Positions 4,143-18,743 of a DNA stretch of 43,008 bases are shown here, in pieces. Each line of letters starts with the position of its first letter. Position 1 is the first letter of the stretch. A model generated the notes under the pieces. That model had not been told where the DNA came from. It was given only the letters and a program-made list of their open reading frames with translations, and did no database searches. Source of the stretch: Actinomycetota bacterium (lineage in GTDB: Bacteria; Actinomycetota; Rubrobacteria; Rubrobacterales; Rubrobacteraceae); the NCBI GenBank assembly GCA_902810695.1, contig CADDYV010000029.1:1-43008 (forward strand), given 5' to 3'. The position numbers were made by a program, and so were the translations under genes.

Positions 4143-4394
4143 GTTAAAAGTGAAGTTTCTCTCGAACCCTCGGACACCAGCGTAAAGCTGGTTCTAAATT
4201 TTCTTGGCCCGCTAAAAGGTGAGGTTGATACACAAAGAATACGCCGGAACAAAGGAATCTATGAACCGATAGGTCCAAATATCCGACGGCAGTTGGAGGA
4301 ATATTTCGAATTGCACAACCAAAGGCTTTACGAATATCTAGGAGTGTATTTCGGTTGGCAACCTCTCCTACGCCCGTTTAAAATGAGTAGTTGA
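4143..4394 (+). pseudogene. Remnant of a sulfotransferase (C-terminal ~80 residues)
   Basis: A plus-strand frame with no usable start (the previous in-frame stop is at 4086) reads LEPSDTSVKLVLNFLG, then EPIGPNIRRQLEEYFELHNQ, then RLYEYLGVYFGWQ, ending at TGA 4392-4394. This matches the C-terminal end of Sulfotransfer_1/NDST-like proteins, where a YEDL..DP..FLGL segment precedes an EYF..HN.RLYE.LG..FGW tail. The PAPS-binding part is absent. It faces the opposite way from all neighbours and its last 17 bases overlap the end of the convergent sulfotransferase. It looks like debris from an earlier recombination. The remaining sequence between 3944 and 4142 shows nothing recognisable. Confidence 0.6.
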
Positions 4395-5067
4395 ACTTCT
4401 CTATATCGTCTTTGTATCTCTCGTAAACAAGATATCTCAGCCTCTCATCGTAAAACTCGCGGTACGTGGATGACTTCCTGTTCTTGGAACGCATTAAATG
4501 TGGAAGCGGCTGCACCCGGTCATCTCCGATCTTCTTCACTACGGTAGCGAAGTCCTCCCTCAGATTCTCGAAGCGACCGATAAAGTCAGCCATAATCGGT
4601 TTGTCTTCTCCCCGGCCGCAGATCACGCTGCATTGAGACTTGAAGTGGATGTTCGCCTCGTTATCGGGAGTCTCGGAAACGATCTCCACGAACTCAGCAA
4701 AAGGCATGCCAGGATAAACCTTGGCAGCCAAGCTAGGAGGCGACTTCATCCCCGGCCTCCCCTTCGTAAGCTTGTCGAGATAACATGAGACGAGTCGATC
4801 CCACGGATTGCGGACGAAGGCGAACTTGAAGTAGTCTCGGTATTTGCCCTCAAGTTCTCTAATAAACTGACCCTTATTTAACTGACGCCCCGAGTTATCG
4901 AAGAACTTATGTATGTCGGACTTAGAAAGACCATTCTCCTTGTCAACACCACTATTCGCGAAGTCATCATCAAAAAGTGGTAGCAGCGCTGTCTTTATGC
5001 TGGTACAAGCAGCTTTCTGTACTACAAAGTAGACGAATTTATGCTCCTCGGAGACTATATATTTCAT
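4378..5067 (-). CDS. Carbohydrate sulfotransferase (Sulfotransfer_2 type)
   Basis: A 229-residue PAPS-dependent sulfotransferase of the HNK-1/chondroitin-type family. The 5'-phosphosulfate loop is QKAACTSIKTAL near the N-terminus. The 3'-phosphate site is FAFVRNPWDRLVSCYLDKL. The C-terminal half has the FIGRFENL segment and ends in a tyrosine-rich tail. The ATG at 5067 was chosen because a GAGG lies 7 bases upstream and the protein then starts MKYIVSEEHKFVYF, as the family does. A start at 5103 would add 12 unlikely residues. Probable role: transferring sulfate from PAPS to a sugar hydroxyl of the surface glycan. The 200 bases upstream show no gene. Confidence 0.85.
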   Translation of the reverse strand: MKYIVSEEHKFVYFVVQKAACTSIKTALLPLFDDDFANSGVDKENGLSKSDIHKFFDNSGRQLNKGQFIRELEGKYRDYFKFAFVRNPWDRLVSCYLDKLTKGRPGMKSPPSLAAKVYPGMPFAEFVEIVSETPDNEANIHFKSQCSVICGRGEDKPIMADFIGRFENLREDFATVVKKIGDDRVQPLPHLMRSKNRKSSTYREFYDERLRYLVYERYKDDIEKFNYSF

Positions 5068-5274
5068 CTCAGGTCCTCGGTCAGAATTGTCCAGCGACAG
5101 CAATCATATCAGCGTCCAGGCCAACTGGTGCGGCTTCTCTTCTTCATTTCTAACCCGCAAGCGGTTGAGCCAGTCCAGCAACTTTCAACCTCTTGAAGAC
5201 TCAATGCCCTGCAACCCGCGAAGGGGTGCAGCTTTATCGCCCCCGCCATCAGGTAACCGCTCCCGGCCAGCTCG

Positions 5275-6306
5275 CTAGCTTCTGGGTTTACCCTTCTGCT
5301 TCTCTCTGATAGAGGACAACGGACCGCTCTGGAGGCTGGTCGGCGGACCCTCAGTCTTCACGCTCCATTCCTCCCAGAACCGCGACTCCCACAGAGGGTA
5401 AGGCAGGCCCTCCTCTTTGGGAGTATCTTCGATGAGCCGTTTTGCGCAGTAGAGCCAGAATGAGGCGTAGCCGCCAAATCTCTCGCTCAGCCTCTCCAGC
5501 AGTTCGTAGTAGGCGCGGGCAAGGTGGACGGCCATGTGCGTCGGCATCTCTCCCACGGTTCTGGAGTGTATCTTTCCCTTCCTGACCTGGTACTCGCTGG
5601 AGGTATTCGCTCCGAGGAAACCGCACAGCTCACGCATCAGAGGCTCGGGGAAGAAGTGTATGTCTTCGAGGAAGCCCACGAAGATCCTCTCCCGCGGGTA
5701 GTACACGCTCCAGTTCTCCAGCGTCCGCAGGTAGTTGGTCTGAAGCCTGGAGTCTCTGCGCTTGAACTTCTGGAGAAGCTCGTTATCGGCTGCCGCGCTC
5801 GCCGAGCCCTTCTCGAGCTTGTCGAAGTTCATTACCGCGTGCGACCAGGCGCGCTCTATGGGATTGCGCATCATGAAGATTATCTTCGTCTCCGGCATCA
5901 GCTTGTGGATGCGGGATATCATGTACGGCTCCAGGATGGAGTAACCTGGGGTGATGTCTCCGGTGATCTTCGCCCGTCCCTGCTCGAAGAGCGAGGCGTA
6001 CCACTCGTTGGTGGGCGCCCTCATGTAGTAGTTGAGGTCCCAGAGCAAGTTCTGGGCCGAAAACGCCTTTACATCTCCCTTGATCCGGGTCTTGAACTGG
6101 TTGCGCCAGCGTTCGTCCGCAGGACGCTTGCCGAAAACCTTGGTAGGCAGAAAGACGAGCGTGGATGAGGGGTCTTTGATCTTCTCGTCGAAGTAGTGGA
6201 GCTCTTTCAGGGGCGGCATCCAGATCTGCGGATGCCTGCGAAGGTTGCGGTCCAACCACGTCGTGCCCGCCTTTTGAGCCCCTATTCCTATGAAGTCCGG
6301 GAACAT
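5275..6306 (-). CDS. Sulfotransferase (Sulfotransfer_1/NDST-like), copy 1 of a pair
   Basis: PAPS-dependent sulfotransferase, 343 residues. The 5'-phosphosulfate loop is GAQKAGTTWL, followed by the HPQIWMPPLKELHYFDE segment typical of the heparan-sulfate N-/O-sulfotransferase type. The 3'-phosphate site is KIIFMMRNPIERAWSHAVM. The start at ATG 6306 is set by AGGAGGG six bases upstream. It is a paralogue of the next upstream gene (6389-7414), with especially strong identity in the C-terminal ERFGGYASFWLYCAKRLIED region, where the DNA also nearly matches. Probable role: sulfating the exported glycan. Confidence 0.88.
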   Translation of the reverse strand: MFPDFIGIGAQKAGTTWLDRNLRRHPQIWMPPLKELHYFDEKIKDPSSTLVFLPTKVFGKRPADERWRNQFKTRIKGDVKAFSAQNLLWDLNYYMRAPTNEWYASLFEQGRAKITGDITPGYSILEPYMISRIHKLMPETKIIFMMRNPIERAWSHAVMNFDKLEKGSASAAADNELLQKFKRRDSRLQTNYLRTLENWSVYYPRERIFVGFLEDIHFFPEPLMRELCGFLGANTSSEYQVRKGKIHSRTVGEMPTHMAVHLARAYYELLERLSERFGGYASFWLYCAKRLIEDTPKEEGLPYPLWESRFWEEWSVKTEGPPTSLQSGPLSSIREKQKGKPRS

Positions 6307-6388
6307 TTCGTCCCTCCTACACGTTTCTGGACGCAATCCGACGCAGATTAACCGGTAGCCGGGTCGAAGTCGAGCGAAGGTTTCTCAT

Positions 6389-7414
6389 TCAAACCGCGGC
6401 CCGCATCGCGGAGAGGCGCCCGCTCTGCAGCCAGGCCCGCTCGGAGTCCTTCCTCGGGATCACGGCGTACTCGTCCATCCACTCCTCCCACATCTCCGAC
6501 TCCCAGAAGGGATACGGGATGTCCGTCTCCTCGGGGGTATCTTCGATGAGCCGCTTTGCGCAGTAGAGCCAGAATGAGGCGTAGCCGCCAAACCTCTCGT
6601 CCAGCTTCTCCAGCAACTCGTAGTAGGTGCGGGCAAGGTAGGAAGCCACGCTGAGCGGTATGGTCTGGATGCCGCGCTGGTGAACCTTGCGCCTCATGAC
6701 CCGGTATTCGGCGGACAGGTCGGCTCCCAGAAACCTGTACACGCGGCGCATCAGCAAGCCTGGATGGAAGTGCATGTCTTCGAGGAAGCCCACGAAGATC
6801 CTCTCCTCCGGGTAGAACGCGCTCCAGTTCTCCAGCGTCCGCAGGTAATCCACCCTCGAACGAAACTCCGCACTCCTGCTCTCGAAATACTGGATAAACT
6901 CTTCAATGGCCACGGTCTCAAGCGGTCTTCCCTTTATCCAGCCAAAGTGCATCGTCGCCTGCGACCAGTTGCGCTCTATCGGGTTTCGTATCATGAAGAT
7001 TATCTTCGCCTCCGGAGCCAGCCTGTGGACGCGGGATATCTCATCCCTGCCGAGCATCGAGTAATCCGGCGTCGCCTCACCCGTGATCCTGCCGCGTCCC
7101 GGCCAGAAGAGGGAGGAGTACCATCTGTCTCCGGGCGGCAGAAGAAAGTAGTCCAGATCCCACAGGAGATCCTTCACCGAGAACCTCTCCCTGTAGCTTC
7201 TGAGCCGCCGAATGAACTTCCTGCGCAGGCGCTTGTTCTCTAGCCGGTTGCTCCAGAAGGCGGAGAGTATCGAGGATCGTATCCGGATCCTCTCGTCAAA
7301 ATAATGAAGCTCTTTCTCCCTGGGCATCCAGACCTGCGGGTGATGCTGGAGGTTCTGATAGAGCCAGGTCGTACCCGCCTTCTGGGCCCCGATGATGAGA
7401 AAGCTCGGAGCCAC
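6389..7414 (-). CDS. Sulfotransferase (Sulfotransfer_1/NDST-like), copy 2 of a pair
   Basis: A 341-residue paralogue of the 5275-6306 gene. The 5'-phosphosulfate loop is GAQKAGTTWLYQNL, then MPREKELHYFDERIR. The 3'-phosphate site is KIIFMIRNPIERNWSQATM. The GTG start at 7414 lies three bases after the TAG of the upstream glycosyltransferase, so translation is probably coupled. The two copies sit in one minus-strand run and probably act on different positions or sugars of the same polymer. Sequence alone cannot assign acceptor specificity. Confidence 0.88.
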   Translation of the reverse strand: MAPSFLIIGAQKAGTTWLYQNLQHHPQVWMPREKELHYFDERIRIRSSILSAFWSNRLENKRLRRKFIRRLRSYRERFSVKDLLWDLDYFLLPPGDRWYSSLFWPGRGRITGEATPDYSMLGRDEISRVHRLAPEAKIIFMIRNPIERNWSQATMHFGWIKGRPLETVAIEEFIQYFESRSAEFRSRVDYLRTLENWSAFYPEERIFVGFLEDMHFHPGLLMRRVYRFLGADLSAEYRVMRRKVHQRGIQTIPLSVASYLARTYYELLEKLDERFGGYASFWLYCAKRLIEDTPEETDIPYPFWESEMWEEWMDEYAVIPRKDSERAWLQSGRLSAMRAAV

Positions 7415-7417
7415 TGC

Positions 7418-8458: not shown

Positions 8459-8460
8459 GT

Positions 8461-9621
8461 CTACCAGCTCTCCATTATCCTCACCAGCGGCTTCACCGCT
8501 ACCGCCGGGTCTATGACCGCCTCGGCGAGCCTGCGGGCGTTCTCCTTTTTCTCCCGCACCCCGGCTGGATTCTCGATGATCTCGTCGAAAGTTGCTTCTA
8601 TTGCCTTCACATCCTCGGGGTCTACGAGCCAGCCGGCGTCGTACTCCTCGACCATCGGCGAGACTTCTGTGAACGTCGGGTGTACAACCGGCACCCCGCA
8701 CGCCAGCGAGATGATCGAGCGGGTTACCATCGCATACTCCCTCTCCAGGTTGTGCTCGAAGAGGTCTATGCTCACGTCAACGCTGGAGAGGAACCTCTGG
8801 AAGTCGGAGAATTTCATCTGGCCGTGCATCGTTACCGAGGGGTGGCCCCCGATCCTGTCGAGGTCGCTCTTGGACTTGTGCGAACGCTCTATGCCGCCGC
8901 CCCAGTGCCAGGGCGTCAGGAGATCCAGGCTCACCCCCGGACGGTCCAGCTTCCTCTCCAGCACGTCCACCCAGTTACCCAGGGTGCTCCACTGCTGCAG
9001 ATAGCCCGCCACCGCAAAACGCACCCCGCCGCTCTGCCGCGCAGAGTTCTCTCCACGCGCGAGCGGCACGCACATGTTCACCACCTCCAGCGGCAGGTGG
9101 CGGATGTCCCGGTTCGCCTGCATCATCCAGCCCAGGAAGTACGGGACCTTCTTCCGCCCGTTGACGATGAAGGCGTCGGCGAGCTCTATGGCCCGTATCT
9201 TGCGCTCCCGCAGTCGGGCCAGCTCTTCCTTCGGATACTCCTCGCCGCGCTGGTAGAGGGTTTCGAGCATCTTGGGGGCGAAGAAGTCCAGGACGTAATG
9301 GATGCCGGGGATCGGCTTCAGGTGGTCGGCCTGATTGGAGTTGATCATGACCACCGTGGCAGGCGCGTTCGTCTTCAGGTAGCGCGAGAGCTGTCGCGCG
9401 CTGACCACCTCGATACCGGGAGCACTTGGGGGAGGGATCTTGCTGCCGAAGCGCAGCCACTGCCGGTCGGCGAAACCCCGAACGGTCAGCGTCTTCACCT
9501 TCAGACCGTGCGCGCGCAGGCCCTCCGCCAGCCCGAAAGCCCGCAAGCCCGGCGCGGCCACGGGCATCTCCTGGCCCGGAACTATGTCGTTGGAGATCAC
9601 GAACACCTGCCCGCTTACCAC
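8461..9621 (-). CDS. Glycosyltransferase, GT-B fold (GT4-like)
   Basis: About 386 residues. It starts VVSGQVFVISNDIVPGQEMP and has the strand-helix pattern of GT-B enzymes. The C-terminal part has LFEHNLEREYAMVTRSIISL, GVPVVHPTFTEVSP and AGWLVDPED, resembling the donor-binding end of GT4-like proteins. The E-x7-E motif is atypical. The GTG at 9621 overlaps the upstream TAA by seven bases. A start at 9855 would add about 78 residues read from the neighbouring gene and is rejected. The gene is tightly coupled to the methyltransferase upstream and the GT4 downstream. Confidence 0.75.
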   Translation of the reverse strand: MVSGQVFVISNDIVPGQEMPVAAPGLRAFGLAEGLRAHGLKVKTLTVRGFADRQWLRFGSKIPPPSAPGIEVVSARQLSRYLKTNAPATVVMINSNQADHLKPIPGIHYVLDFFAPKMLETLYQRGEEYPKEELARLRERKIRAIELADAFIVNGRKKVPYFLGWMMQANRDIRHLPLEVVNMCVPLARGENSARQSGGVRFAVAGYLQQWSTLGNWVDVLERKLDRPGVSLDLLTPWHWGGGIERSHKSKSDLDRIGGHPSVTMHGQMKFSDFQRFLSSVDVSIDLFEHNLEREYAMVTRSIISLACGVPVVHPTFTEVSPMVEEYDAGWLVDPEDVKAIEATFDEIIENPAGVREKKENARRLAEAVIDPAVAVKPLVRIMESW

Positions 9622-10799
9622 GTCTGCGGAACACCTACTTTCGTAACCGCGATCAAACCTCCCCTGTACATATCGTCGTGCGGGTACTTTAACGACTCCA
9701 CGTGCTCCAGGACAACCCGCCCATCCGTCGCTTCTACCAGCAGGTCCACGAACCTCAGCACGGACATCGGGTAGACGGTGGACTTCTCGGTGTGCCCCGA
9801 GCCCACGAAGTCCTCCAGGAACATGAGCCGCCCGCCAGGACGGACCACGCGCCACATCTCGGAGATCAGCCTCCGTTTCGCCTCCGTGGGGTTGTGGTGC
9901 ATGACGGTAACGGTGAAGGCCAGATCGAAGCTCTCATCCCGGCAGGGAAAGACAAGCTCATCTCCGAGCGCCTCAAAGCTCGCCCGCGGAAAGTTGGCCC
10001 GCGCAGCCCGGACCATCCCCTCGCTGATATCCAGCCCGCAAAACCGCATCCTCCGCAGATCGAAGCTCGCCGCCCACCGCCCGATCCCGCACCCCACTTC
10101 AAGGACATCGAAGGGCAGATCTTCGGCGCGACCTTCCTGAAGAGCAGCGAACTGCGGTTCGATCACGGCTGCCTGCACTTGGTGCATCGCCTTGTTGAAG
10201 GCGAGATCGTGGTGGACGCTGCAGATCGCCCGGTACGGCGAGGAGTCCGCCAGCGCATCGCCCCGCTCTCTCCAGTAGGCGGCGGCCTCGTAGCTGTCGC
10301 CGCCGAAGAACGTCGGCGTCTCCGACTCGCTCTCCAGCAGGCGGCACACCTCGACGGTTACCCCGCCGGGATCCGTGCTCTCCACCTCGATGCGCTGCCC
10401 ACCGGCCCAGCCATACTTTTCGCGTAGCCTCTCCCAGAGCGCGTCGTCCCGAACCACGACGCGGTCGAAAAAGACCAGCCTCTCGAAGAGCGGGCAACCA
10501 AACACGCTAACGAGGAAATGCTCGTCGAGGTCCGGTGGGATCACCACTACCAGCGGAACGCTCCATTGTTCCCCGGTCATCGCCTCATAAGGGAAAGAGA
10601 AGATGTCCAGGACGACGAGAACGCTGGTCTCTTCCAGGATGGCGCCGAGCCGTGCGGGCAGCACCTCCCACTCGCTAAGAACCGTGCAACCTTCGGGGAG
10701 ATCTGCGCCGTTAACTTGCTCCGAGAAGCGACCAGCGTAGAGGACCAGGCGTTTCCCGGCAGTGATCTCCGGCCTGAGCTGTTGCGCCGTCTCGCTCAA
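9615..10799 (-). CDS. SAM-dependent methyltransferase (Methyltransf_11 type) with N-terminal extension
   Basis: 394 residues. The C-terminal half is a class I methyltransferase: motif I DVLEVGCGIGRWA, CGLDISEGMVRAA, SFDLAFTVTVMHHN, then MWRVVRPGGRLMFLEDF. The N-terminal ~170 residues are a separate Rossmann-like segment of unknown role (RLVLYAGRF, TSVLVVLDIFSF, VPLVVVIPPDLDEHF). It starts with TTG at 10799, overlapping the preceding TGA (TTGA). Probable role: methylating a sugar or glycan end. In ABC-exported polysaccharides, terminal methylation can stop chain growth, but no such role can be shown here. Confidence 0.8.
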   Translation of the reverse strand: MSETAQQLRPEITAGKRLVLYAGRFSEQVNGADLPEGCTVLSEWEVLPARLGAILEETSVLVVLDIFSFPYEAMTGEQWSVPLVVVIPPDLDEHFLVSVFGCPLFERLVFFDRVVVRDDALWERLREKYGWAGGQRIEVESTDPGGVTVEVCRLLESESETPTFFGGDSYEAAAYWRERGDALADSSPYRAICSVHHDLAFNKAMHQVQAAVIEPQFAALQEGRAEDLPFDVLEVGCGIGRWAASFDLRRMRFCGLDISEGMVRAARANFPRASFEALGDELVFPCRDESFDLAFTVTVMHHNPTEAKRRLISEMWRVVRPGGRLMFLEDFVGSGHTEKSTVYPMSVLRFVDLLVEATDGRVVLEHVESLKYPHDDMYRGGLIAVTKVGVPQTW

Positions 10800-11227
10800 A
10801 GGTAACGCTGCTCCAGCGTGCGGAAGTTCCTGTTACGCCGGAAGACAGATCCGGCAGGGCTGTTGCCCATCCGTCGCAGCAGCAACTGCAGGTCCTTTTC
10901 CGCTCCCTCCAGGTAAGCCACCCGTTCCGGCGAGGAACCCTCCGGGCGCGGCGCGCGGAGGTAGCGTTGCTCCAGCGTGCGGAAGTTCTTGTTGAGACGG
11001 AGGACCGGAGCCGCCGGGCTCGACGCCATCCGCCGCAGCAGCAGCCGGAGGTCGGTCTCCGCCTCTTCGAGGCGCGAGAGCCGGCTAAGGGAGACGGAGG
11101 CGCCAACGCTCACATCTCCCCCGCTCAGCCGCGCCTTGAGGAAACGCACCTCGAAAGCGAGAAGCTCGTTCTCCATCCTGAGCCTGTCTGCCTCCGTTGG
11201 AGTGTAGAACTCGTTCTCTTCAGGCAA
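10796..11227 (-). CDS. Small protein with tandem ~40-residue repeat and N-terminal coil
   Basis: 143 residues, family not recognised. The N-terminal part is helical and charged (EADRLRMENELLAFEVRFLK). Then come two copies of a unit: RLEEAETDLRLLLRRMASSP...NKNFRTLEQRYL and YLEGAEKDLQLLLRRMGNSP...NRNFRTLEQRYL, joined by a Pro/Arg linker. The second copy ends the protein exactly. The repeat is also visible in the DNA: a TAGCGTTGCTCCAGCGTGCGG-like segment occurs near 10803 and 10963. The TTG start at 11227 overlaps the sulfotransferase stop by eight bases and has GGGAG upstream. Its place inside the GT/sulfotransferase operon suggests a scaffold or length-sensing partner of the coiled-coil enzymes, which is inference only. 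Confidence 0.7.
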   Translation of the reverse strand: MPEENEFYTPTEADRLRMENELLAFEVRFLKARLSGGDVSVGASVSLSRLSRLEEAETDLRLLLRRMASSPAAPVLRLNKNFRTLEQRYLRAPRPEGSSPERVAYLEGAEKDLQLLLRRMGNSPAGSVFRRNRNFRTLEQRYL

Positions 11228-12023
11228 CTTCTATCTCCCTGAGTAGCATCTGCTCCGTCCTTTTGCTCAGCCCTTCGAGCGCCCGCCAGGTGGTGTTTAC
11301 TTCGCCGATCAAACGCCGGTCCGAAACTGGCTGCTTTCCGGGGCGCCTGCCGGTTATGCTTGTGTCGAAGACCTCCCCTATCGGGACGTCTTTCAGCCCC
11401 AACTTCCAGCGCCGGTTTATGGCCCAGATCAGCGGGAATCCGTCCTGAAGCATGTCCATCGAGAGCACCATCGTGTCCTCGGGATGGACGCGGGCGAAGG
11501 AGACCAGGGCCTCGTTGTGCGTGAGCCACATCCTCAGAGCCAGGTCCGGCTCCTGCCAGAAGCGGCGGTGCAATTTGCCGGGCCCTTCGTTCGAGAACAG
11601 GTTGGCAGAGTGCCTGCGCGTCAGCGAGTAGGTCGCGTCCGCGAAGTGCCGGTAAACGATGAGCACCTTGGCGTCAGGGAGCAGGTACTTCCAGAGCATG
11701 ATAAACGGGCACGCCCGCGGGTCCTTGAACCCCCACAGCCTGTGCTCGGCGTTGCGTTGATCTATGATCTGCTGCATCCGCTGCCAGCGATTCTGGTTCA
11801 CGACGGGCAAAAGCCGCTCGCCGACCTGCCAGGTCAGATCGTTGTCGCCGAGTATCTGCTGGTGGAGGTTCACCACTTCTCTGTCCTCGAAGTGGCCATA
11901 AGGATTTGAGGGGTTCGCGTCGAGCAACTCGTAGCCGAGGAAGAGCCCTGCCCGGTGCAGAAGCTGGGCGGTAAGAGACGTCCCGCTGCGGTGAAACCCC
12001 GCGATTATTAGCTGCTCGCTCAC
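11220..12023 (-). CDS. Sulfotransferase (Sulfotransfer_1/3 type)
   Basis: 267 residues. The 5'-phosphosulfate loop GFHRSGTSLTAQLL is at the very N-terminus. The 3'-phosphate site is KVLIVYRHFADATYSLTRRHS. The NPSNPYGHFEDREVVNLHQ segment is typical of bacterial sulfotransferase-like proteins in polysaccharide loci. The start is GTG at 12023 with AAGGAG close upstream. It is probably the first gene of the run 12023 to 6389, given the 200-base gap above it. The acceptor is unknown. Confidence 0.85.
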   Translation of the reverse strand: MSEQLIIAGFHRSGTSLTAQLLHRAGLFLGYELLDANPSNPYGHFEDREVVNLHQQILGDNDLTWQVGERLLPVVNQNRWQRMQQIIDQRNAEHRLWGFKDPRACPFIMLWKYLLPDAKVLIVYRHFADATYSLTRRHSANLFSNEGPGKLHRRFWQEPDLALRMWLTHNEALVSFARVHPEDTMVLSMDMLQDGFPLIWAINRRWKLGLKDVPIGEVFDTSITGRRPGKQPVSDRRLIGEVNTTWRALEGLSKRTEQMLLREIEVA

Positions 12024-12089
12024 ATACTCCTTCCTCTTCGGCGACTCACGCTAAGCAACCTCGCATTCTAGACCATCGGAATTACCTTT

Positions 12090-12113
12090 GATAAGAAGTT
12101 ATCGCCGTATACG
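12090..12113. promoter_or_regulatory. Dyad symmetries in the 200-base gap upstream of the 12023 operon
   Basis: The gap at 12024-12223 is more AT-rich than its flanks. It holds a GATAA/TTATC inverted repeat (12090-12103) next to the 8-bp palindrome CGTATACG (12106-12113). This is a plausible operator or promoter area for the downstream minus-strand run. No convincing -35/-10 pair could be fixed. Nothing else is seen in the gap. Confidence 0.25.
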
Positions 12114-12223
12114 ACCGTAAGCGGGTATGTATAGTAGCCAAAGCTTTCGTACCGGAGAACGGTTAGCGTGGTTACGCTTCAATTACTTGCTCTAGCGAGC
12201 GGATAGAGGACTCGTATTCTTGC

Positions 12224-12841
12224 CTACACACCAATCGCTTGCTTGTAGATACGATACTCTGGCTCTAGGTATTCACGCAACTCGCGCTCGCATTCCTCGG
12301 AGAGCTCAAAGGAGAGCTTTGGTGAGACGTTGCTGGTTCCCACCTCTACCTCCTCACCCACCTTCTCGCACAGATACTCTATTAGTAACTCCAGGCGCTC
12401 GTAGCAGAATATCCGGTCCACCTCGCGCTTTCCTGGTTGTGACTTTACGAACCTGGCCTGGCGACCCACCCGGGCGAAGTGTTCATCGCCTTTCATGTAA
12501 GCGCAAACGAACTGCTCAAAGGAGATATCTCCTGTGTAGTTGCGGTGAGCAGGACGTGAAGGGTCTGCAAGCTCCTCCCGCGAGCGATAGCGCCACCAGC
12601 TCGCAAGCCACTCGATAGGCTCGCGGAATACGCACACCACTTCGTAGGACTCGCGGGGAAAGCCTTTCGAGGCTAGATACGGTTGCAGAAAGCGCTGGAA
12701 CTGAGCGTACGTGGTGTGCTTGAACGATGGATTACCGTGCGTGGCAGCATCTGAGTACGAGCGGAAAGCCCTTTCGACCGAAGTCGAAGCTGCCTTGGGC
12801 ATGGACAGAAACACAAAACCGCGGCGCGGGGCCAGCAACAT
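12224..12841 (-). CDS. Sulfotransferase (Sulfotransfer_2-like), tandem copy A1
   Basis: 205 residues. The 5'-phosphosulfate loop is SMPKAASTSVERAF and the 3'-phosphate site is EVVCVFREPIEWLASWW. It is short but appears complete, ending in a helical EECERELREYLEPEYRIY segment. ATG 12841 has GAGGGAGG seven bases upstream. The first ~50 codons are diverged from the neighbouring copy (12893-13519), roughly 60% identical in protein. Codons ~51-198 are identical to it at DNA level. The last ten residues differ again. It probably sulfates the glycan; paralogue specificity, if any, would reside in the N-terminal part. Confidence 0.82.
   Translation of the reverse strand: MLLAPRRGFVFLSMPKAASTSVERAFRSYSDAATHGNPSFKHTTYAQFQRFLQPYLASKGFPRESYEVVCVFREPIEWLASWWRYRSREELADPSRPAHRNYTGDISFEQFVCAYMKGDEHFARVGRQARFVKSQPGKREVDRIFCYERLELLIEYLCEKVGEEVEVGTSNVSPKLSFELSEECERELREYLEPEYRIYKQAIGV
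12246..12691. repeat. 446-bp exact direct repeat, copy A1 (partner 12924-13369)
   Basis: Compared line by line, this tract is identical to 12924-13369, at an offset of 678 bp. Identity stops abruptly on both sides inside homologous but diverged coding sequence. It covers most of the sulfotransferase catalytic and C-terminal region. Confidence 0.92.
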
Positions 12842-12892
12842 GATTTAGCCTCCCTCAATCGTCATGTGCGCTGGGCTGTCACGGCAAACCGG

Positions 12893-13519
12893 CTACGTCG
12901 CCAGCTCTGCCATTGCCCGCTCATAGATACGATACTCTGGCTCTAGGTATTCACGCAACTCGCGCTCGCATTCCTCGGAGAGCTCAAAGGAGAGCTTTGG
13001 TGAGACGTTGCTGGTTCCCACCTCTACCTCCTCACCCACCTTCTCGCACAGATACTCTATTAGTAACTCCAGGCGCTCGTAGCAGAATATCCGGTCCACC
13101 TCGCGCTTTCCTGGTTGTGACTTTACGAACCTGGCCTGGCGACCCACCCGGGCGAAGTGTTCATCGCCTTTCATGTAAGCGCAAACGAACTGCTCAAAGG
13201 AGATATCTCCTGTGTAGTTGCGGTGAGCAGGACGTGAAGGGTCTGCAAGCTCCTCCCGCGAGCGATAGCGCCACCAGCTCGCAAGCCACTCGATAGGCTC
13301 GCGGAATACGCACACCACTTCGTAGGACTCGCGGGGAAAGCCTTTCGAGGCTAGATACGGTTGCAGAAACTTTTGAAACCCGGCGTACTGAGTGTGCTTG
13401 AATGCCGGGTATCCCTGCAAGACCATAGTCGCGTAAGGCAAGAAAGCACTTTCGATCGAGGTCGAAGCTGCCTTGGGCATGGCGAGAAAGACGAAGCCCT
13501 TAGTAGGAGCCAGCAGCAT
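12893..13519 (-). CDS. Sulfotransferase (Sulfotransfer_2-like), tandem copy A2
   Basis: 208 residues, paralogous to 12224-12841. The 5'-phosphosulfate loop is AMPKAASTSIESAF and the 3'-phosphate site is EVVCVFREPIEWLASWW. The N-terminal 50 residues and the C-terminal tail (ERAMAELAT) differ from copy A1, while the middle is identical at DNA level. ATG 13519 lies three bases after the TAA of the upstream glycosyltransferase. It is likely co-transcribed from 17385 downward. Confidence 0.82.
   Translation of the reverse strand: MLLAPTKGFVFLAMPKAASTSIESAFLPYATMVLQGYPAFKHTQYAGFQKFLQPYLASKGFPRESYEVVCVFREPIEWLASWWRYRSREELADPSRPAHRNYTGDISFEQFVCAYMKGDEHFARVGRQARFVKSQPGKREVDRIFCYERLELLIEYLCEKVGEEVEVGTSNVSPKLSFELSEECERELREYLEPEYRIYERAMAELAT
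12924..13369. repeat. 446-bp exact direct repeat, copy A2 (partner 12246-12691)
   Basis: This is the second copy of the exact repeat in the tandem sulfotransferases, in the same orientation. No terminal inverted repeats, target-site duplications or transposase are associated with it. Confidence 0.92.
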
Positions 13520-13522
13520 TGC

Positions 13523-14446
13523 TTATCCACTAGCCACGGCAGATGTCACCGCGAGTTGCCGTCGGAGCGGTTCGTAGGTCTGCCGGAGGTGCTCAACTAC
13601 ATGTGTCCCATCAGGGCTCTCGACCCGGATGATTCCCTCGGGCAACGATAACCCCTCGCGAAGGGCATGGAACAGTTCCCATTCGCGCCGCTTGCGAGCG
13701 TTGATCACGGACTTGAACTCGGTGTACGACCAGTGATTAAACTCTTTGGCATCCAGCCACTTCAACTCGAAGCACACGAAGCCAGGCAGCCTCGTTACGG
13801 GATCACCCGGTTGGGAAAGCATCAACTCCCAGTCGAATGCCTTCGCAAATGTATAAGCCGGTGAGTTACGCCACCCCCACGGCTCCGCTTTCGTCGGCGT
13901 GGTGTCGAGGTAGGCAACGTGTTCGTCTTTAACATAGACCGGCGAACGCGGAATCGTGATCGCCCCATCGGAGCCCTCAAGCTGCCAGGAGAGATCCCGC
14001 AACACCCTCTCCCCTTGCGGACTTAACACCATGTCCCCATCCCACTTCAATGCATATCTCGTCCTTACATGCGAAAAGCTCCAGTTGTAGAAGTAAGTCA
14101 AACTGTGCACCGAATCGGGGTAGGTGGCAAGGTGCTCCGGTCCACACCTCGATACCTCAAAGGGGTATGAGAGCACCCGCAGCTTCTCTTCCAGACCTTC
14201 TTCCCCAGCGACCTGGTGGGCAAGATCTGGGGTTCCATCTGTGGAGAGGTTGTCTACCAGGACAACTTCTTCTACCGAGCGGAGCACCCCTGGCAGCACC
14301 CAGGGGATGGATTGGGCTTCGTTTTTGACCCTCATCACTGCTGTAAAGCCTGAGCTTGAGGGTTTTGTTACCCACTTCCAGCGGATCGCGTACTCTCCTA
14401 TCCCCTCCCGGTTCATCCACTCTTCAGATATGCTTATCCCTGACAC
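13523..14446 (-). CDS. GT2-like glycosyltransferase (standalone second-domain paralogue)
   Basis: About 307 residues, equivalent to the second domain of the 15538-17385 protein. It has TAVMRVKNEAQSIPWVLPG, VVLVDNLSTDGTPDL and YALKWDGDMVLSP, the GT2 nucleotide-binding and DxD-type elements. A WGWRNSP...AFDWE region and a C-terminal HVVEHLRQTYEPLRR segment follow. The GTG at 14446 was chosen because AGGAG lies eight bases upstream. A GTG at 14470, just after the upstream stop, would add eight residues. Residues about 12-160 are DNA-identical to the paralogue and the rest is diverged. It could be a truncated duplicate that stayed in frame. Confidence 0.75.
   Translation of the reverse strand: MSGISISEEWMNREGIGEYAIRWKWVTKPSSSGFTAVMRVKNEAQSIPWVLPGVLRSVEEVVLVDNLSTDGTPDLAHQVAGEEGLEEKLRVLSYPFEVSRCGPEHLATYPDSVHSLTYFYNWSFSHVRTRYALKWDGDMVLSPQGERVLRDLSWQLEGSDGAITIPRSPVYVKDEHVAYLDTTPTKAEPWGWRNSPAYTFAKAFDWELMLSQPGDPVTRLPGFVCFELKWLDAKEFNHWSYTEFKSVINARKRREWELFHALREGLSLPEGIIRVESPDGTHVVEHLRQTYEPLRRQLAVTSAVASG
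13965..14414. repeat. 450-bp exact direct repeat, copy B1 (partner 16094-16543)
   Basis: Compared line by line, this tract is identical to 16094-16543, at an offset of 2129 bp. It covers the GT2 nucleotide-binding core. Identity ends sharply at both ends within homologous, diverged sequence. Confidence 0.92.
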
Positions 14447-14471
14447 CCCGCATTCTCCTGCGCGTAGCACA

Positions 14472-15545
14472 TCATCTGAACATCTCGAACAAGGCCCGCT
14501 TGAGCCGAAGGGGGATCAGACCGCGCGCTCTAGCCGGGACCAGCCGCCTGACCAGCGTCAGCAAGAGGTCCGCGAGCGGCTCCGGCTGCGGCGCGGGCGG
14601 CTTTGGCGTTTCCTTCGCCTCTTGCCCGGGCGGCTTCCTTCGGAGCAGCGGACGGGTCGCCGCCATCGTGGTTGATTGGGCGACATGCTCGGCGTAGCGG
14701 TAGAAGGTCGTGTACTCCTCGCGGTGCTCATCCAGACGGGACAGCACTGCATCGTCATCACCAGATCCAGGTTCGGCGAGCAACAGCAAATCCTCCCACA
14801 CCTGTTCTGCAAGATACACCAGGGCCTTGGGAGCATCTAGGTCTTCCCAGGTCGCCCTCGAGCGGCGTAGCGAATGGTCCACGAAGCTGTCCGCCGACGC
14901 TTGGTTCCGGGCTCGCGCGTTCACCAGGGACGGGATGTCGAACTGCGTACTGATGCGGGCAATCGTCTGGGTCCAGTCTTCCAGCAAATCCTCGAACCGG
15001 ATGAAGGCCCGCCGGCACTCGCGGGTCGCCCGCTCGGTGAACAGCATCGTGTTGACCCAGCCAGCCACGCGGTTGGCATCGGTAAGGGACATGTACGAGT
15101 ACCAGTGAGACTTGCTGCTCACCACCTCTGCCGGGTGCCGGAGCACGGTAACCACGTGAACGTTGGCGTCCAGCTCACCACCAACCCGGTTCCACAGCGG
15201 CAGGAACCACAGCAGCCGCGGGTCTTTGATCACCACCCGGTCGTGGCCGGAGAACTGTTTCTCCAACCACTGCCGCACCTCGGCGCTTACCTGCTCGTCG
15301 AGGCAGATCTTGGCGGTATCCGCCCAGGCAGCCGGGCGCGCGTCAGAGGCATGCACGTTGGCCCGCCGCAGGAGCGCCATGTGCTGGTCCACGACCCACT
15401 GCGGCTCTCCGAACCCCCGCGGGTTGGTGTCATCAGATTTTACCTGCGGCTCAGGCACATAGAACCCCAAATTGCCGACGATATTCGCGAACAGGCTGGT
15501 GCCGCTGCGGCCAGAGCCAGCCACAAGAATCAGGTCTCTACTCAT
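14472..15545 (-). CDS. Sulfotransferase (Sulfotransfer_3-like)
   Basis: 357 residues. The N-terminal MSRDLILVAGSGRSGTSLFA carries the 5'-phosphosulfate loop. The 3'-phosphate site is VHVVTVLRHPAEVVSSKSHW. A DTNPRGFGEPQWVVDQHMAL segment parallels the NPYGHFED region of the 11220 sulfotransferase, so the two are probably distant relatives. The C-terminal end is Pro/Arg-rich and basic. ATG 15545 has GGGAG seven bases upstream and overlaps the upstream gene by eight bases. A start at 15629 would add Arg-rich out-of-frame-type residues and is rejected. The acceptor is unknown. Confidence 0.85.
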   Translation of the reverse strand: MSRDLILVAGSGRSGTSLFANIVGNLGFYVPEPQVKSDDTNPRGFGEPQWVVDQHMALLRRANVHASDARPAAWADTAKICLDEQVSAEVRQWLEKQFSGHDRVVIKDPRLLWFLPLWNRVGGELDANVHVVTVLRHPAEVVSSKSHWYSYMSLTDANRVAGWVNTMLFTERATRECRRAFIRFEDLLEDWTQTIARISTQFDIPSLVNARARNQASADSFVDHSLRRSRATWEDLDAPKALVYLAEQVWEDLLLLAEPGSGDDDAVLSRLDEHREEYTTFYRYAEHVAQSTTMAATRPLLRRKPPGQEAKETPKPPAPQPEPLADLLLTLVRRLVPARARGLIPLRLKRALFEMFR

Positions 15546-17385
15546 GTGAGATCTCCCTGCTCTGCGTCGATTGCGGAACCTGGATCGCCTCCCGTGTGGA
15601 CGATAGATCAGATTCGCCGCGAGCTTCAACCACCGGCAGCCCTATTCCACCACTGTCGGACAGGCCGGGAACCGGCGCGATCACACCGTATCGGCGCAAC
15701 GCCACGTAGACCTGCCGAAGGTGTTCGACCACGTGTATACCTTCCGGGCTCTCGATCCGGACTACCCCTTCGGGGGGCGCAGCGCCACTGAGTAGCGCGC
15801 GGCTTACGTCCCACTCCCGCCACTTGCGGCGATGGCGTTCCGTCTGGAAGTCTGTATGGGACCAGTGGTCGAACTGGTCCTGGTCAAGCCACTTCAACTC
15901 GAAGCATGTCCAGTCCGGAATCTGGAGGAGATTTTCTGCCCAGGGTCGCACGATCTCCCAGTCGAAGCCCTTGATAAACGTGTGGTCAGGGGAGTTGCGC
16001 CAGCCCCAAAGCTCGTGGGGCATTGTCCCGAGATCCACGTAAGCGACACGGCTACTCTCCACATATACCGGGGAGCGACACATTCTTACTGTTCCATCGG
16101 AGCCCTCAAGCTGCCAGGAGAGATCCCGCAACACCCTCTCCCCTTGCGGACTTAACACCATGTCCCCATCCCACTTCAATGCATATCTCGTCCTTACATG
16201 CGAAAAGCTCCAGTTGTAGAAGTAAGTCAAACTGTGCACCGAATCGGGGTAGGTGGCAAGGTGCTCCGGTCCACACCTCGATACCTCAAAGGGGTATGAG
16301 AGCACCCGCAGCTTCTCTTCCAGACCTTCTTCCCCAGCGACCTGGTGGGCAAGATCTGGGGTTCCATCTGTGGAGAGGTTGTCTACCAGGACAACTTCTT
16401 CTACCGAGCGGAGCACCCCTGGCAGCACCCAGGGGATGGATTGGGCTTCGTTTTTGACCCTCATCACTGCTGTAAAGCCTGAGCTTGAGGGTTTTGTTAC
16501 CCACTTCCAGCGGATCGCGTACTCTCCTATCCCCTCCCGGTTCGGCCACCATTCCCGACCGGAGAACGCCCAGTCCTCAGCCATGTGCCGCCTGCGCGGG
16601 TTCGAGGGATCGAGTTCCTGGTCGGAAGTGTAGGTCTTGAGCTCGTCCTGCGAGGGCAGCACGATATTCTCCTCGTTCAACCTCGCGCGCCAGCTATGCC
16701 AGCCGCGGTCCAGCTCCGCCTTCTCGAAGCTGCGGTTCCCGTACTTTTGTAGGAGGTGCTCACCACTCAGGAAGAGGTAATGCTTCATCGGGAATTTAAC
16801 CGGATAAAGCTTCATTCCCGGGAAACTCAGCTTGTGTCCACCCGAGTCGGCTAGCCCCACGGGTCCACTCTGCTGTCGCCATGCGTTCACCCGATGTGGA
16901 GACGAGGATGGGCTAAATGGGTAGTACCAGCGCATCGTCCTCTGATAGTCCGGGTGGTCGTGGTCGGGAGATTCGCGGGTAGGCACGAAGACGAACTCCT
17001 GGAAGTCCACCGCGTTGTAGCCGGCCTCCTCGACCTCGGCGAAGGCTTCGGCGAGCGTCTGATCCGCACGAGGCGGCAGGCGGATCTCGTCTGCATCCAC
17101 GTGCATGAACCAGTCCGCTTCCAGCGTGGAAGCCAGTTCCTCTTTGCGCTCGAGGATTGCCTGCCACCTGTAGATCCCCTCGCGGCGGGGGAAAGTCTCA
17201 ATGCCGACCACCCCACGCCCGAGGTACTCTCTGGCGATCTCCACGGTACGGTCGGTGGAGCAGTTGTCTATCAGGTAGACGCACACGCCCTGGCCTATGA
17301 GATGCTCGATACACCCCCGGATAAAGCGTTCCTCGTTGTAGGTGGCCAGTATAGCCACCACGCGTACTCGATGAGAGGAGCTCAT
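15538..17385 (-). CDS. Two-domain GT2 glycosyltransferase
   Basis: 615 residues with two GT2-type modules. Domain 1 (about 8-250) has VAILATYNEERFIRGCIEHL, LIDNCSTDRTVEIA and WFMHVDADEIR (DADE at 97-100). Domain 2 (about 285-590) has AVMRVKNEAQSIPW, LVDNLSTDGTPDL and KWDGD (about 404-408), and is paralogous to the 13523-14446 protein. The ATG at 17385 has GAGGGTG upstream. It heads a tight run 17385-12224. It probably adds two sugars or a repeating disaccharide during glycan assembly. Codons about 282-430 are DNA-identical to the paralogue. Confidence 0.82.
   Translation of the reverse strand: MSSSHRVRVVAILATYNEERFIRGCIEHLIGQGVCVYLIDNCSTDRTVEIAREYLGRGVVGIETFPRREGIYRWQAILERKEELASTLEADWFMHVDADEIRLPPRADQTLAEAFAEVEEAGYNAVDFQEFVFVPTRESPDHDHPDYQRTMRWYYPFSPSSSPHRVNAWRQQSGPVGLADSGGHKLSFPGMKLYPVKFPMKHYLFLSGEHLLQKYGNRSFEKAELDRGWHSWRARLNEENIVLPSQDELKTYTSDQELDPSNPRRRHMAEDWAFSGREWWPNREGIGEYAIRWKWVTKPSSSGFTAVMRVKNEAQSIPWVLPGVLRSVEEVVLVDNLSTDGTPDLAHQVAGEEGLEEKLRVLSYPFEVSRCGPEHLATYPDSVHSLTYFYNWSFSHVRTRYALKWDGDMVLSPQGERVLRDLSWQLEGSDGTVRMCRSPVYVESSRVAYVDLGTMPHELWGWRNSPDHTFIKGFDWEIVRPWAENLLQIPDWTCFELKWLDQDQFDHWSHTDFQTERHRRKWREWDVSRALLSGAAPPEGVVRIESPEGIHVVEHLRQVYVALRRYGVIAPVPGLSDSGGIGLPVVEARGESDLSSTREAIQVPQSTQSREISHE
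16094..16543. repeat. 450-bp exact direct repeat, copy B2 (partner 13965-14414)
   Basis: This is the second copy of the exact repeat, inside domain 2 of the two-domain glycosyltransferase. Outside the tract the two genes are only moderately similar, for example WGWRNSPDHTFIKGFDWE here and WGWRNSPAYTFAKAFDWE there. Confidence 0.92.
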
Positions 17386-17591
17386 CTTCTAATTCACCCT
17401 CGGAGAAAGTTCTCTATTCTTATTTCTTGCATCTCTGGTAGGTTTGGGGCTCTGTTTAACGACATCTAAGAATATTCAACTCCCTGAAGTTTTCGATCTC
17501 GATACCCGTCCAGCTAGTAACGGTTGGACTGTAGCAGGTTTTGAGCAGTTTTGCGAGAGTATTCGCAGAACGCACATCGGAGCTCGACCTC

Positions 17592-17616
17592 GCTGCTCCC
17601 GGACCGCTAGAGCAGC
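17592..17616 (-). terminator. Hairpin just downstream of the 17619-18743 operon
   Basis: A perfect 7-bp stem, GCTGCTC (17592-17598) with GAGCAGC (17610-17616) and an 11-base loop, begins two bases beyond the stop at 17619. The T-run (17617-17620) is on the plus-strand side, so for the minus-strand operon it would be a stem without a U-tract. The rest of the 17386-17618 gap holds no gene. Confidence 0.4.
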
Positions 17617-17618
17617 TT

Positions 17619-18743
17619 TTACCAATCGTCATCCGCTTCATAGCCGAGCCTGATGAGCAGCCCTCCTGCCTCTTTCTTGAAAACCTGTTTGTCCCGCTGG
17701 GTAAAGATGTTTTTCCAGTCGCCCGCCACACCTTTTCTGTAGAAGGAGGCGGCGTCTTCCTCTCCCCTTTTCCTTCCCTTCGCCAGTTTCTCGAAGCGGG
17801 TCGAGTTTACGCACTTTCCCACGGATTCGTCGTCGGAGGAGACGCCGAGGAATTCCAGAAGGGTACGGAATTCGCGTTCCGGCCTCTCCAGCAGGGCTTC
17901 GTACTGGATCTCCCTGTAGTTCTCGCCGAGGAGGGCCGGTCCGTCTTTTGTAGCCTGACCTACCCTGCTGCTCCAGTCCGAGGCGAGTTGTTCGAGCTGG
18001 CCTTTTGCAAAGATGCTCTGCCCGGATTCCGCGAACTTTTTCGGGTCCGCGCGGTAGGCTTCGCGTTTTACCGCTATCTCGGAGCCTTCTTTTACGTTGC
18101 CGAAGTTCCAGAGGTGGTGCGCGGCGGAGACGGCCATGTCTCTGCCGTCCCTTATAATGTGGATGACCCTGGCTTCGGGGTAGATACGCGATATCTCCCG
18201 CACCATCTCCGGGTTTAGAAGAGGAGATTTGTCCCCCACCAGCCTCTTGCCGCTCTTCAGGAGATCCTGGATCAGGAAGTAGTCGGCGGCCATGCGAACG
18301 AGGTTCTCCAGGTGCTCTCCGGGATCTCCGTCCCGGCTCCAGACGGACCGCTCGACCCAGATCCGGAGGTAGTCGGCGTCCAAAAGCGCGGCGTAGAGCG
18401 AGCTTGCGGGGCGATCAATCTCCTCTTTTTTGAGGGCTTTGCGCTTCCAGTCTGCGCCGAAGATGCGGCCCTCTCCTTTGCAGAGTATTTCCGGGTGGGC
18501 GTCGAGCATCTGCATCAGCCACGTGGTCCCCGACCTCATGTGCCCGATGACGAAGAAGACGGGCGTTGAGGTCTCCGGCGGCTCCACTCCCCTCCGCGCA
18601 AGCTCGCGCTCCAGGGCGGATATCCGGGCGTTTCTGGCGGCGATCTGACGCCGCGCCTGCCTGCCGGGGTTTACCTCACGCAACAGACGCACCGGATCCT
18701 TGAGTGCCCGCATCAGGCGGTGTATTTCCTGCGGAAGCGGCAC
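17619..18743 (-). CDS. Sulfotransferase (Sulfotransfer_1/3) with N-terminal coil
   Basis: 374 residues. A basic helix (RQARRQIAARNARISALERE) precedes the catalytic domain. The 5'-phosphosulfate loop is GHMRSGTTWLMQMLDAHPEI. The 3'-phosphate site is ARVIHIIRDGRDMAVSAAHH. The GTG start at 18743 overlaps the rmlD stop by one base (TAGTG), so it is the last gene of the 21899-17619 operon. It ties sulfation directly to rhamnose-dependent glycan assembly. Confidence 0.87.
   Translation of the reverse strand: MPLPQEIHRLMRALKDPVRLLREVNPGRQARRQIAARNARISALERELARRGVEPPETSTPVFFVIGHMRSGTTWLMQMLDAHPEILCKGEGRIFGADWKRKALKKEEIDRPASSLYAALLDADYLRIWVERSVWSRDGDPGEHLENLVRMAADYFLIQDLLKSGKRLVGDKSPLLNPEMVREISRIYPEARVIHIIRDGRDMAVSAAHHLWNFGNVKEGSEIAVKREAYRADPKKFAESGQSIFAKGQLEQLASDWSSRVGQATKDGPALLGENYREIQYEALLERPEREFRTLLEFLGVSSDDESVGKCVNSTRFEKLAKGRKRGEEDAASFYRKGVAGDWKNIFTQRDKQVFKKEAGGLLIRLGYEADDDW

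What the first reader, a model, noticed from the sequence alone, without database searches (positions are those of the whole stretch)
4143..18743. Sulfotransferase-dense glycan locus in an actinobacterium-like genome
Eight intact sulfotransferases plus one remnant, of at least four sequence types, are interleaved with glycosyltransferases, methyltransferases and a rhamnose/xylose/glucuronate sugar-nucleotide set, next to an ABC exporter with a Wzt-like C-terminal domain. Each has both PAPS-binding elements, for example KAGTTW, KAASTS, RSGTS or RSGTTW loops with a downstream R(N/D/H/E)P or RDG site. So many distinct enzymes suggest a heavily and site-specifically sulfated surface polymer, which is unusual outside marine organisms and eukaryotes. 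The polymer's nature is inference.
Basis: partly seen in the sequence, partly recalled or inferred. Interest (0 to 1): 0.75.

Follow-up and report, generated by a model that had tools for sequence, protein, structure and literature searches.

The report
Sulfotransferase-rich wall-glycan locus of Rubrobacteraceae
This stretch of a Gram-positive bacterium's genome is a family-wide gene locus that very probably builds and exports a heavily sulfated surface sugar polymer, which might be the missing negatively charged wall polymer of a group that seems to lack ordinary teichoic acids.

Summary
In detail: eight intact PAPS-type sulfotransferase (ST) genes of six sequence types and one + strand C-terminal remnant lie at 4.1-18.7 kb, among glycosyltransferases, methyltransferases and rhamnose/xylose/glucuronate nucleotide-sugar genes, next to a Wzm/Wzt ABC exporter. 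The genome also encodes ATP sulfurylase and two APS kinases. What is new is the context. The window is one whole contig of a Rubrobacteraceae genome. The locus sits beside thrC-thrB-ilvBHC and is syntenic over about 30 kb with a closed genome of the same family; related loci carry up to 11 STs. It is a family trait, not an oddity. Inside it, a colinear block (ST4-coiled coil-methyltransferase-GT-GT-ST2) recurs, diverged, in Acidimicrobiales, Nitriliruptorales and Sediminihabitans, and reduced in the proteobacterium Palleronia. Best reading: cytoplasmic sulfation of an ABC-exported wall or capsule polymer. Sulfate itself and the polymer's structure are unproven. No TagB/TagF-type polymerase (PF04464) was found in any of 39 family genomes, and lipoteichoic acid/lipoglycan was reported as apparently absent in R. 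xylanophilus, so a sulfate-based anionic wall polymer is a testable hypothesis. I found no published description in the library searched.

The parts
245..2938 (-). GT2x2: protein with two GT2-type glycosyltransferase domains; low GC3 (0.63)
   Evidence: PF13704 1e-45; GC3
2987..3982 (-). MT1: SAM-dependent methyltransferase
   Evidence: PF13649/PF08241
4143..4358 (+). ST remnant: C-terminal ~72 aa of a sulfotransferase, no N-terminal part
   Evidence: 52% identity over 77 aa to the C-terminus of an intact ST in L025
4378..5103 (-). ST1: sulfotransferase, Sulfotransfer_2 type
   Evidence: PF03567 1.3e-35
5275..6336 (-). ST2: sulfotransferase, related to PDB 3rnl and heparan sulfate 3-O-sulfotransferases
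   Evidence: PF13469/PF00685; PDB search
6389..7414 (-). ST3: tandem paralogue of ST2, 54% identical
   Evidence: PF13469/PF00685
7418..8467 (-). GT1a: GT-B glycosyltransferase of the core block
   Evidence: PF13692/PF00534; conserved in relatives
8461..9678 (-). GT1b: GT-B glycosyltransferase of the core block (start set by comparison with relatives)
   Evidence: Weak PF00534/PF13692; conserved block
9615..10799 (-). MT2: methyltransferase of the core block
   Evidence: PF08241 2e-18
10796..11227 (-). CC: small protein with two ~40-aa repeats, probably coiled coil; core block
   Evidence: No Pfam match; a separate ORF between ST4 and MT2 in relatives
11220..12023 (-). ST4: sulfotransferase of the core block
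   Evidence: PF13469; model pLDDT 90.6; best PDB matches are sulfotransferases
12224..12841 (-). ST5: sulfotransferase, divergent Sulfotransfer_2 type
   Evidence: PF03567 27.6 bits; motifs
12893..13519 (-). ST6: tandem copy of ST5; 360 nt identical
   Evidence: 89% aa identity; nucleotide comparison
13523..14470 (-). GT2c: GT2-like protein, copy of the second half of GT2dd
   Evidence: 82% over 857 nt; weak PF00535
14472..15545 (-). ST7: sulfotransferase
   Evidence: PF13469; 64% identical orthologue in G013
15538..17385 (-). GT2dd: GT2 glycosyltransferase with a duplicated second half
   Evidence: PF00535 4e-15
17619..18743 (-). ST8: sulfotransferase, TPST/SULT-like; part of the conserved frame
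   Evidence: PF13469 6e-27, PF00685 3e-22; PDB search
18743..19582 (-). RmlD: dTDP-4-dehydrorhamnose reductase
   Evidence: TIGR01214 above cut-off
19601..21085 (-). GT4: glycosyltransferase, groups 1 and 4
   Evidence: PF13692/PF00534/PF13439
20964..21899 (-). GT2e: GT2 glycosyltransferase
   Evidence: PF00535 8e-20
22079..23620 (+). AmiGol: exported amidase_2 + golvesin C-terminal domain protein, recurrent in the locus
   Evidence: PF01510, PF25275; N-terminal hydrophobic segment; synteny
23652..24653 (-). UXS: UDP-glucuronate decarboxylase (UDP-xylose synthase)
   Evidence: PDB 4gll/2b69, E 4e-102
24646..26010 (-). UGD: UDP-glucose 6-dehydrogenase type
   Evidence: TIGR03026 above cut-off; best score against TuaD model, below its cut-off
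26191..27042 (+). Wzm: ABC-2 membrane subunit of the exporter
   Evidence: PF01061; membrane segments
27039..28370 (+). Wzt: exporter ATPase with Wzt_C domain, the only Wzt_C in the genome
   Evidence: PF00005 + PF14524
28376..29389 (+). GT2f: GT2 glycosyltransferase
   Evidence: PF00535 4e-26
29386..30237 (+). GT2g: GT2 glycosyltransferase
   Evidence: PF13641/PF00535
30935..31837 (-). RmlA: glucose-1-phosphate thymidylyltransferase; right edge of the locus, followed by thrC
   Evidence: TIGR01207 above cut-off; synteny

Best explanation
This is the Rubrobacteraceae version of an ABC-transporter-dependent surface (wall or capsular) polysaccharide locus in which sulfation is a main chemistry. 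SHOWN by sequence: eight PAPS-type sulfotransferases plus a remnant, glycosyltransferases, two methyltransferases, dTDP-Rha, UDP-GlcA and UDP-Xyl enzymes, a Wzm/Wzt exporter with a Wzt_C domain, a fixed chromosomal site, and a conserved frame with variable ST/GT content. INFERRED: glycosyltransferases build a rhamnose/xylose/glucuronate-containing chain on a lipid carrier in the cytoplasm; the soluble sulfotransferases move sulfate from PAPS to defined hydroxyls before export, and the methyltransferases decorate or cap; Wzt_C recognises the finished chain and Wzm/Wzt exports it; LCP-type ligases may attach it to peptidoglycan. The colinear block ST4-CC-MT2-GT1b-GT1a-ST2 is a horizontally moving module that makes one sulfated, methylated oligosaccharide element. 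Duplication and gene conversion of STs diversify the sulfation pattern.
For: Pfam/NCBIfam/PDB identities of the genes; PAPS elements in all eight STs and no membrane segments; conserved motif residues in orthologues; ST4 model with sulfotransferase fold; PAPS synthesis genes in the genome; ~30-kb synteny beside thrC-thrB-ilvBHC in G013 and partly in G036; same type of locus with 8-11 STs in five relatives; core block in other classes and in Palleronia, with partly congruent ST4 and GT1a trees; LCP ligase genes present. By analogy, xss (synechan) and Vibrio KMM 8419 clusters with STs do make sulfated polysaccharides.
Against: No sulfate ester has been measured in any Rubrobacteraceae glycan that I could find. 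No acceptor can be read from the sequence. The APS kinases are not in the locus. Initiating and chain-terminating enzymes are not identified. Part of the ST multiplicity is recent duplication. PDB TM-scores for ST4 are low (0.40-0.52), and the ST5 model failed.
Confidence: 0.72

Rival explanations
1. The locus makes a sulfated glycolipid, lipo-oligosaccharide or specialised metabolite rather than a long polymer, as NodH does in rhizobia and sulfolipid sulfotransferases do in mycobacteria; the ABC transporter exports a small molecule.
For: NodH and Stf0 are bacterial STs acting on lipid-linked sugars (reviewed in PMC11625862). The ATPase also scores, weakly, with NodI-type exporters.
Against: Many glycosyltransferase domains, three nucleotide-sugar branches, and an ATPase closest to TarH and polysaccharide-type exporters, with a Wzt_C domain; wall-directed AmiGol protein in the same loci. 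No lipid, PKS or NRPS gene was seen in the window.
Confidence: 0.13
2. The glycan is attached to a protein (S-layer, pilus or other surface glycoprotein) and is sulfated there, as known for some archaeal glycoproteins.
For: Rhamnose-rich bacterial S-layer glycans use ABC exporters (general knowledge); sulfation of surface glycoproteins is known in archaea (general knowledge).
Against: No oligosaccharyltransferase or S-layer gene was recognised among the window ORFs scanned. Not searched in the rest of the genome.
Confidence: 0.08
3. Many of the STs are redundant or decaying copies; the product carries only one or two sulfates, or the locus makes several alternative products.
For: One remnant, ST5/ST6 nearly identical, ST2/ST3 duplicates, low-GC3 newcomers at the left end.
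Against: All eight are full-length with PAPS elements; relatives of ST2, ST4, ST5, ST7 and ST8 recur in other genera. This rival concerns number and not the nature of the locus, so it overlaps the best explanation.
Confidence: 0.3

Closest known systems
xss cluster of Synechocystis PCC 6803 (synechan; PMC8205485)
   Same: GT-rich cluster with PF00685/PF13469/PF03567-type STs for a sulfated extracellular polysaccharide; 8 GTs and 2 STs matched the composition found.
   Different: Wzx/Wzy pathway, 2 STs, cyanobacterium. Here: ABC exporter with Wzt_C, 8 STs, Gram-positive; product unproven.
Sulfated capsule locus of Vibrio sp. KMM 8419 (PMC11641403)
   Same: ABC transporter, dTDP-Rha supply and sulfotransferases; sulfated capsule solved by NMR.
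   Different: Three ST genes and PAPS genes inside the region; Gram-negative marine host. Here PAPS genes are elsewhere in the genome.
wps-1 cluster of Actinoplanes missouriensis (PMC13390465)
   Same: Actinomycete EPS cluster with STs of two families and a methyltransferase, proposed to make a sulfated polysaccharide.
   Different: Two STs, Wzx/Wzy-type, sporangium matrix; sulfate also unproven there. Gene-level homology to this locus was not tested.
Wall teichoic / teichuronic acid systems (TarGH/TagGH, TuaD)
   Same: ATPase domain closest in PDB to TarH; UGD scores best against the TuaD model, below its cut-off; LCP proteins in the genome.
   Different: No PF04464 polyol-phosphate polymerase in 39 family genomes; Wzt_C domain; sulfation genes.

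Membership tests
PAPS-dependent sulfotransferases (PF00685/PF13469/PF03567) | Family profile match above the curated cut-off | tested here: met
   Seven of eight above cut-off; ST6 at 20.7 of 22 bits but 89% identical to ST5
PAPS-dependent sulfotransferases (PF00685/PF13469/PF03567) | 5'-phosphosulfate-binding loop and 3'-phosphate-binding Arg element | tested here: met
   Both seen in all eight; the ST1 loop is atypical (VQKAACTS); conserved in orthologue alignments
PAPS-dependent sulfotransferases (PF00685/PF13469/PF03567) | Sulfotransferase fold | tested here: inconclusive
   ST4: confident model, best PDB matches TPST/NDST1 at E ~1e-4 but TM only 0.40-0.52; ST5 model failed; the other six were not modelled
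PAPS-dependent sulfotransferases (PF00685/PF13469/PF03567) | Sulfate transfer from PAPS to a glycan | not testable with these tools
   Needs enzyme assay
ABC-transporter-dependent polysaccharide locus (Wzm/Wzt) | ABC-2 permease + ATPase with Wzt_C domain, linked to GTs | tested here: met
   only Wzt_C in the genome
ABC-transporter-dependent polysaccharide locus (Wzm/Wzt) | No linked Wzx/Wzy | tested here: met
   No flippase or polymerase family among window ORFs scanned; the contig is cut at base 1, so genes beyond are unknown
ABC-transporter-dependent polysaccharide locus (Wzm/Wzt) | Identified initiating and chain-terminating enzymes | tested here: inconclusive
   Methyltransferases and CC are candidates only; a PDB search with MT2 gives generic methyltransferases
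xss-like sulfated EPS cluster | Wzx/Wzy/PCP machinery linked to STs | tested here: not met
   None in the window; the ST-bearing C2 cluster has a flippase-like multispanning protein, read by eye only
Wall teichoic acid (polyol phosphate) | TagB/TagF-type polymerase PF04464 | tested here: not met
   0 of 39 family genomes; controls positive
Wall-attached glycopolymer | LCP ligase available in the genome | tested here: met
   Four PF03816 matches in the genome, none in the window; linkage itself untested

The most novel reading that the evidence does not exclude
Rubrobacteraceae use a sulfated, uronic-acid-bearing polymer as their main anionic wall polymer in place of phosphate-based teichoic acids, encoded at a fixed chromosomal locus beside thrC-thrB-ilv, with exchangeable sulfotransferase/glycosyltransferase modules that give strain-specific sulfation patterns.
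Probability: 0.2. Interest if true: 0.8.

Novelty: new variant of a known kind. Interest (0 to 1): 0.55.

Why it matters
Chemically proven bacterial sulfated polysaccharides are few, and the characterised clusters come from cyanobacteria and marine Gram-negatives (PMC8205485, PMC11641403). A locus with 8-11 sulfotransferases, kept across a family of Gram-positives from hot springs, soil crusts and similar habitats, would be a rich source of new glycan sulfotransferases. It also offers gene targets for an open question: lipoteichoic acid/lipoglycan was reported as apparently absent from Rubrobacter xylanophilus (Rahman et al., as cited in PMC3196553), and no family genome has PF04464, so what carries the wall's negative charge is unknown. 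Cultured Rubrobacter strains with the locus exist, so ordinary wall chemistry could answer it.

Tried and rejected
1) That ORF 10796-11227 is a frameshifted tail of ST4 or an ST remnant: rejected, it is a separate conserved ORF in relatives. 2) That the ninth ST (remnant) was imagined: tblastn with the window's own STs found none, but the + strand fragment matches STs from relatives. 3) That the cluster is unique to this genome: rejected. 4) genome-contig scan with ST3 found no relatives; the ST4 profile worked. 5) ST5 structure: failed with a 3-sequence alignment. 6) PDB sequence searches with ST1 and with the ST4, ST5 and ST7 profiles: no usable match; the weak ST5-profile hit (E 0.25) is chance. 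7) tRNA or known structural RNA in the window: none. 8) MT2 as a WbdD-like chain terminator: only generic methyltransferases match, so it stays an analogy. 9) Literature on sulfated glycans in Rubrobacter: nothing in the library searched, which lacks most subscription journals.
Full report
WHAT WAS CHECKED. The window is the whole of contig C29 (43,008 bp) of a 3.59-Mb, 148-contig draft genome, 98% complete. Gene names are mine; coordinates are in the parts list. Relatives returned by a named-genome scan are labelled Rubrobacteraceae or Rubrobacter, and the genome search puts 38 further genomes in the same family. One of these, G013, is a single contig of 3,225,748 bp, which I recall as the length of R. 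xylanophilus DSM 9941; that identification rests on memory only.

OBSERVATION. Eight sulfotransferase (ST) ORFs lie between 4378 and 18743, all on the - strand, and Pfam supports all eight, one just under its cut-off. They fall into six sequence types. All carry both PAPS-binding elements and none has a membrane segment. The claimed remnant exists on the + strand at about 4143-4358: it matches the C-terminus of intact STs in relatives. The genome holds about 14 STs: ten PF13469 proteins (counting split hits once), three PF03567-type proteins in the window and one PF19798 protein. Eight of them lie within 14.4 kb, 0.4% of the genome.

SURROUNDINGS. To the right are RmlD, two GTs, an Amidase_2/Golvesin_C wall protein, UDP-xylose synthase, UDP-glucose dehydrogenase, a Wzm/Wzt pair with Wzt_C, two GT2s and RmlA, then housekeeping genes: thrC, thrB, ilvB, ilvH (by position), ilvC, a class IV aminotransferase, leuA and leuB. 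To the left, GT2x2 and MT1 run towards the contig end. GT2x2, MT1 and ST1 have GC3 0.58-0.63 against 0.79-0.87 for the housekeeping genes, so they look recently acquired.

PAPS SUPPLY. Contig C5 has ATP sulfurylase and APS kinase beside a Sulfotransfer_5 gene; contig C3 has CysH, sulfite reductase and a second APS kinase. The donor can be made. One inositol-monophosphatase-family protein could recycle PAP, but that family has other functions.

FAMILY-WIDE LOCUS. Mapping window proteins onto relatives shows a conserved frame: ST8, RmlD, GT4 and GT2e on one side; AmiGol, UXS, UGD, Wzm, Wzt, GT2f, GT2g and RmlA on the other. In G013 this order runs for about 30 kb up to thrC-thrB-ilvB-ilvH-ilvC; G036 has exporter, GT2f, GT2g, RmlA and thrC-thrB in the same order. 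Between the frame genes the ST/GT content varies. ST ORFs counted in this type of locus: window 8, G013 8, G014 8, G024 8, G036 9, G022 11 (the profiles were built here, and low-scoring members may have other substrates). The named strain R. taiwanensis Yellowstone has ST4, an ST5/ST6 orthologue, GT2dd, GT2c, Wzm, Wzt, RmlD and AmiGol together.

TWO MODULES. (1) Core block ST4-CC-MT2-GT1b-GT1a-ST2(-ST3), colinear in several Rubrobacteraceae. Diverged or partial versions occur in Acidimicrobiia/Acidimicrobiales (L050, L052, L055), Nitriliruptorales (L051), Sediminihabitans luteus (L053) and, as ST4-MT2-GT1b-GT1a, in the alphaproteobacterium Palleronia aestuarii (L054). A GT1a profile at a strict threshold found 12 family genomes and one other among 396 Actinomycetota. 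ST4 and GT1a trees both pair L051 with L053 and group L055 with L060+L061, as expected if the genes travel together; several forks are weak. (2) GT2dd-ST7-GT2c-ST5: same order in G013 on the opposite strand; partial in G014 and R. taiwanensis. In the window it lies between ST8 and ST4, absent at that place in L042 (Rubrobacter sp. LC3_4).

RECENT CHANGE. ST5 and ST6 are identical over nucleotides 181-540 of the genes but differ by 11-24 per 60 nt before that: gene conversion, or an assembly chimera that long reads would expose. GT2c matches the second half of GT2dd at 82% over 857 nt with a 300-nt tract at 95%.

STRUCTURE. ST4, hard to classify by sequence, gives a confident model whose best PDB matches are sulfotransferases (TPST2, TPST1, NDST1; best E 7.7e-5), with low global TM scores of 0.40-0.52: the same fold core with a divergent rest. 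ST2 relates by sequence to PDB 3rnl and heparan sulfate 3-O-sulfotransferases, ST8 to TPST and SULT enzymes. These resemblances do not reveal the acceptor. The ST5 model failed.

MECHANISM. The best-supported model is cytoplasmic synthesis and sulfation of a Rha/Xyl/GlcA-containing chain followed by Wzm/Wzt export. Wzt_C occurs once in the genome, here. LCP proteins exist, so wall attachment is possible. All chemical steps are inferred from families.

ANIONIC WALL POLYMER IDEA. No family genome has PF04464, while suitable controls do. A paper on Streptomyces LTA cites Rahman et al. for the apparent absence of LTA/lipoglycan in R. xylanophilus (PMC3196553). A sulfated wall polymer would fill that gap. 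This is a hypothesis: absence of one polymerase family does not exclude other phosphate polymers.

PREVALENCE AND NOVELTY. Outside the family, 77 of 223 sampled Actinomycetota genomes have PF13469, so STs are not rare in the phylum. The described clusters that I read have two or three STs. I found no description of this locus in the library searched. I class it as a new variant of a known kind: an ABC-dependent surface polysaccharide locus with unusually heavy sulfation capacity.

Noticed in passing
window 12224-13519: ST5 and ST6 share a 360-nt tract without a single difference, flanked by clearly diverged sequence: recent gene conversion or an assembly chimera.
   Followed up: partly
window 1-5103: The left-end genes (GT2x2, MT1, ST1) have GC 0.48-0.52 and GC3 about 0.6 against about 0.8 or more in most of the contig, which suggests recent acquisition.
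   Followed up: partly
L054 10001-14278 (Palleronia aestuarii); L053 (Sediminihabitans luteus): Diverged copies of the core block ST4-MT2-GT1b-GT1a lie in a marine alphaproteobacterium and in a Cellulomonadaceae member, pointing to wide horizontal spread.
   Followed up: partly
window 22079-23620 and relatives (L026, L027, L029, L030, L031, L046, L049): An exported amidase_2 + golvesin C-terminal domain protein recurs in these loci, sometimes in two copies; its role in polymer display is unknown.
   Followed up: no
L019 9277-11884 (contig C5): ATP sulfurylase and APS kinase are neighbours of a Sulfotransfer_5 (PF19798) gene, a possible dedicated PAPS-plus-sulfotransferase unit outside the glycan locus.
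   Followed up: no
L018 13344-16330 (contig C2): A second glycan cluster in the same genome has three tandem sulfotransferases beside a flippase-like multispanning protein, RmlC- and RmlD-like genes and a sugar-phosphate transferase.
   Followed up: partly
L042 9564-11446: In Rubrobacter sp. LC3_4 the MT2 protein carries an extra CC-like stretch at its N-terminus, linking CC and MT2 functionally.
   Followed up: no
L044 (MAG labelled uncultured Arthrobacter, AVDCRST_MAG83): Its core block is about 61-70% identical to the Rubrobacteraceae one and groups inside them in the ST4 tree; the contig is probably misbinned.
   Followed up: no
L036 (G181 contig C4, 156-168 kb); L037 (G249 contig C47): Other sulfotransferase-dense stretches occur in another Actinomycetota family, with enzymes only distantly related to ST8.
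   Followed up: no
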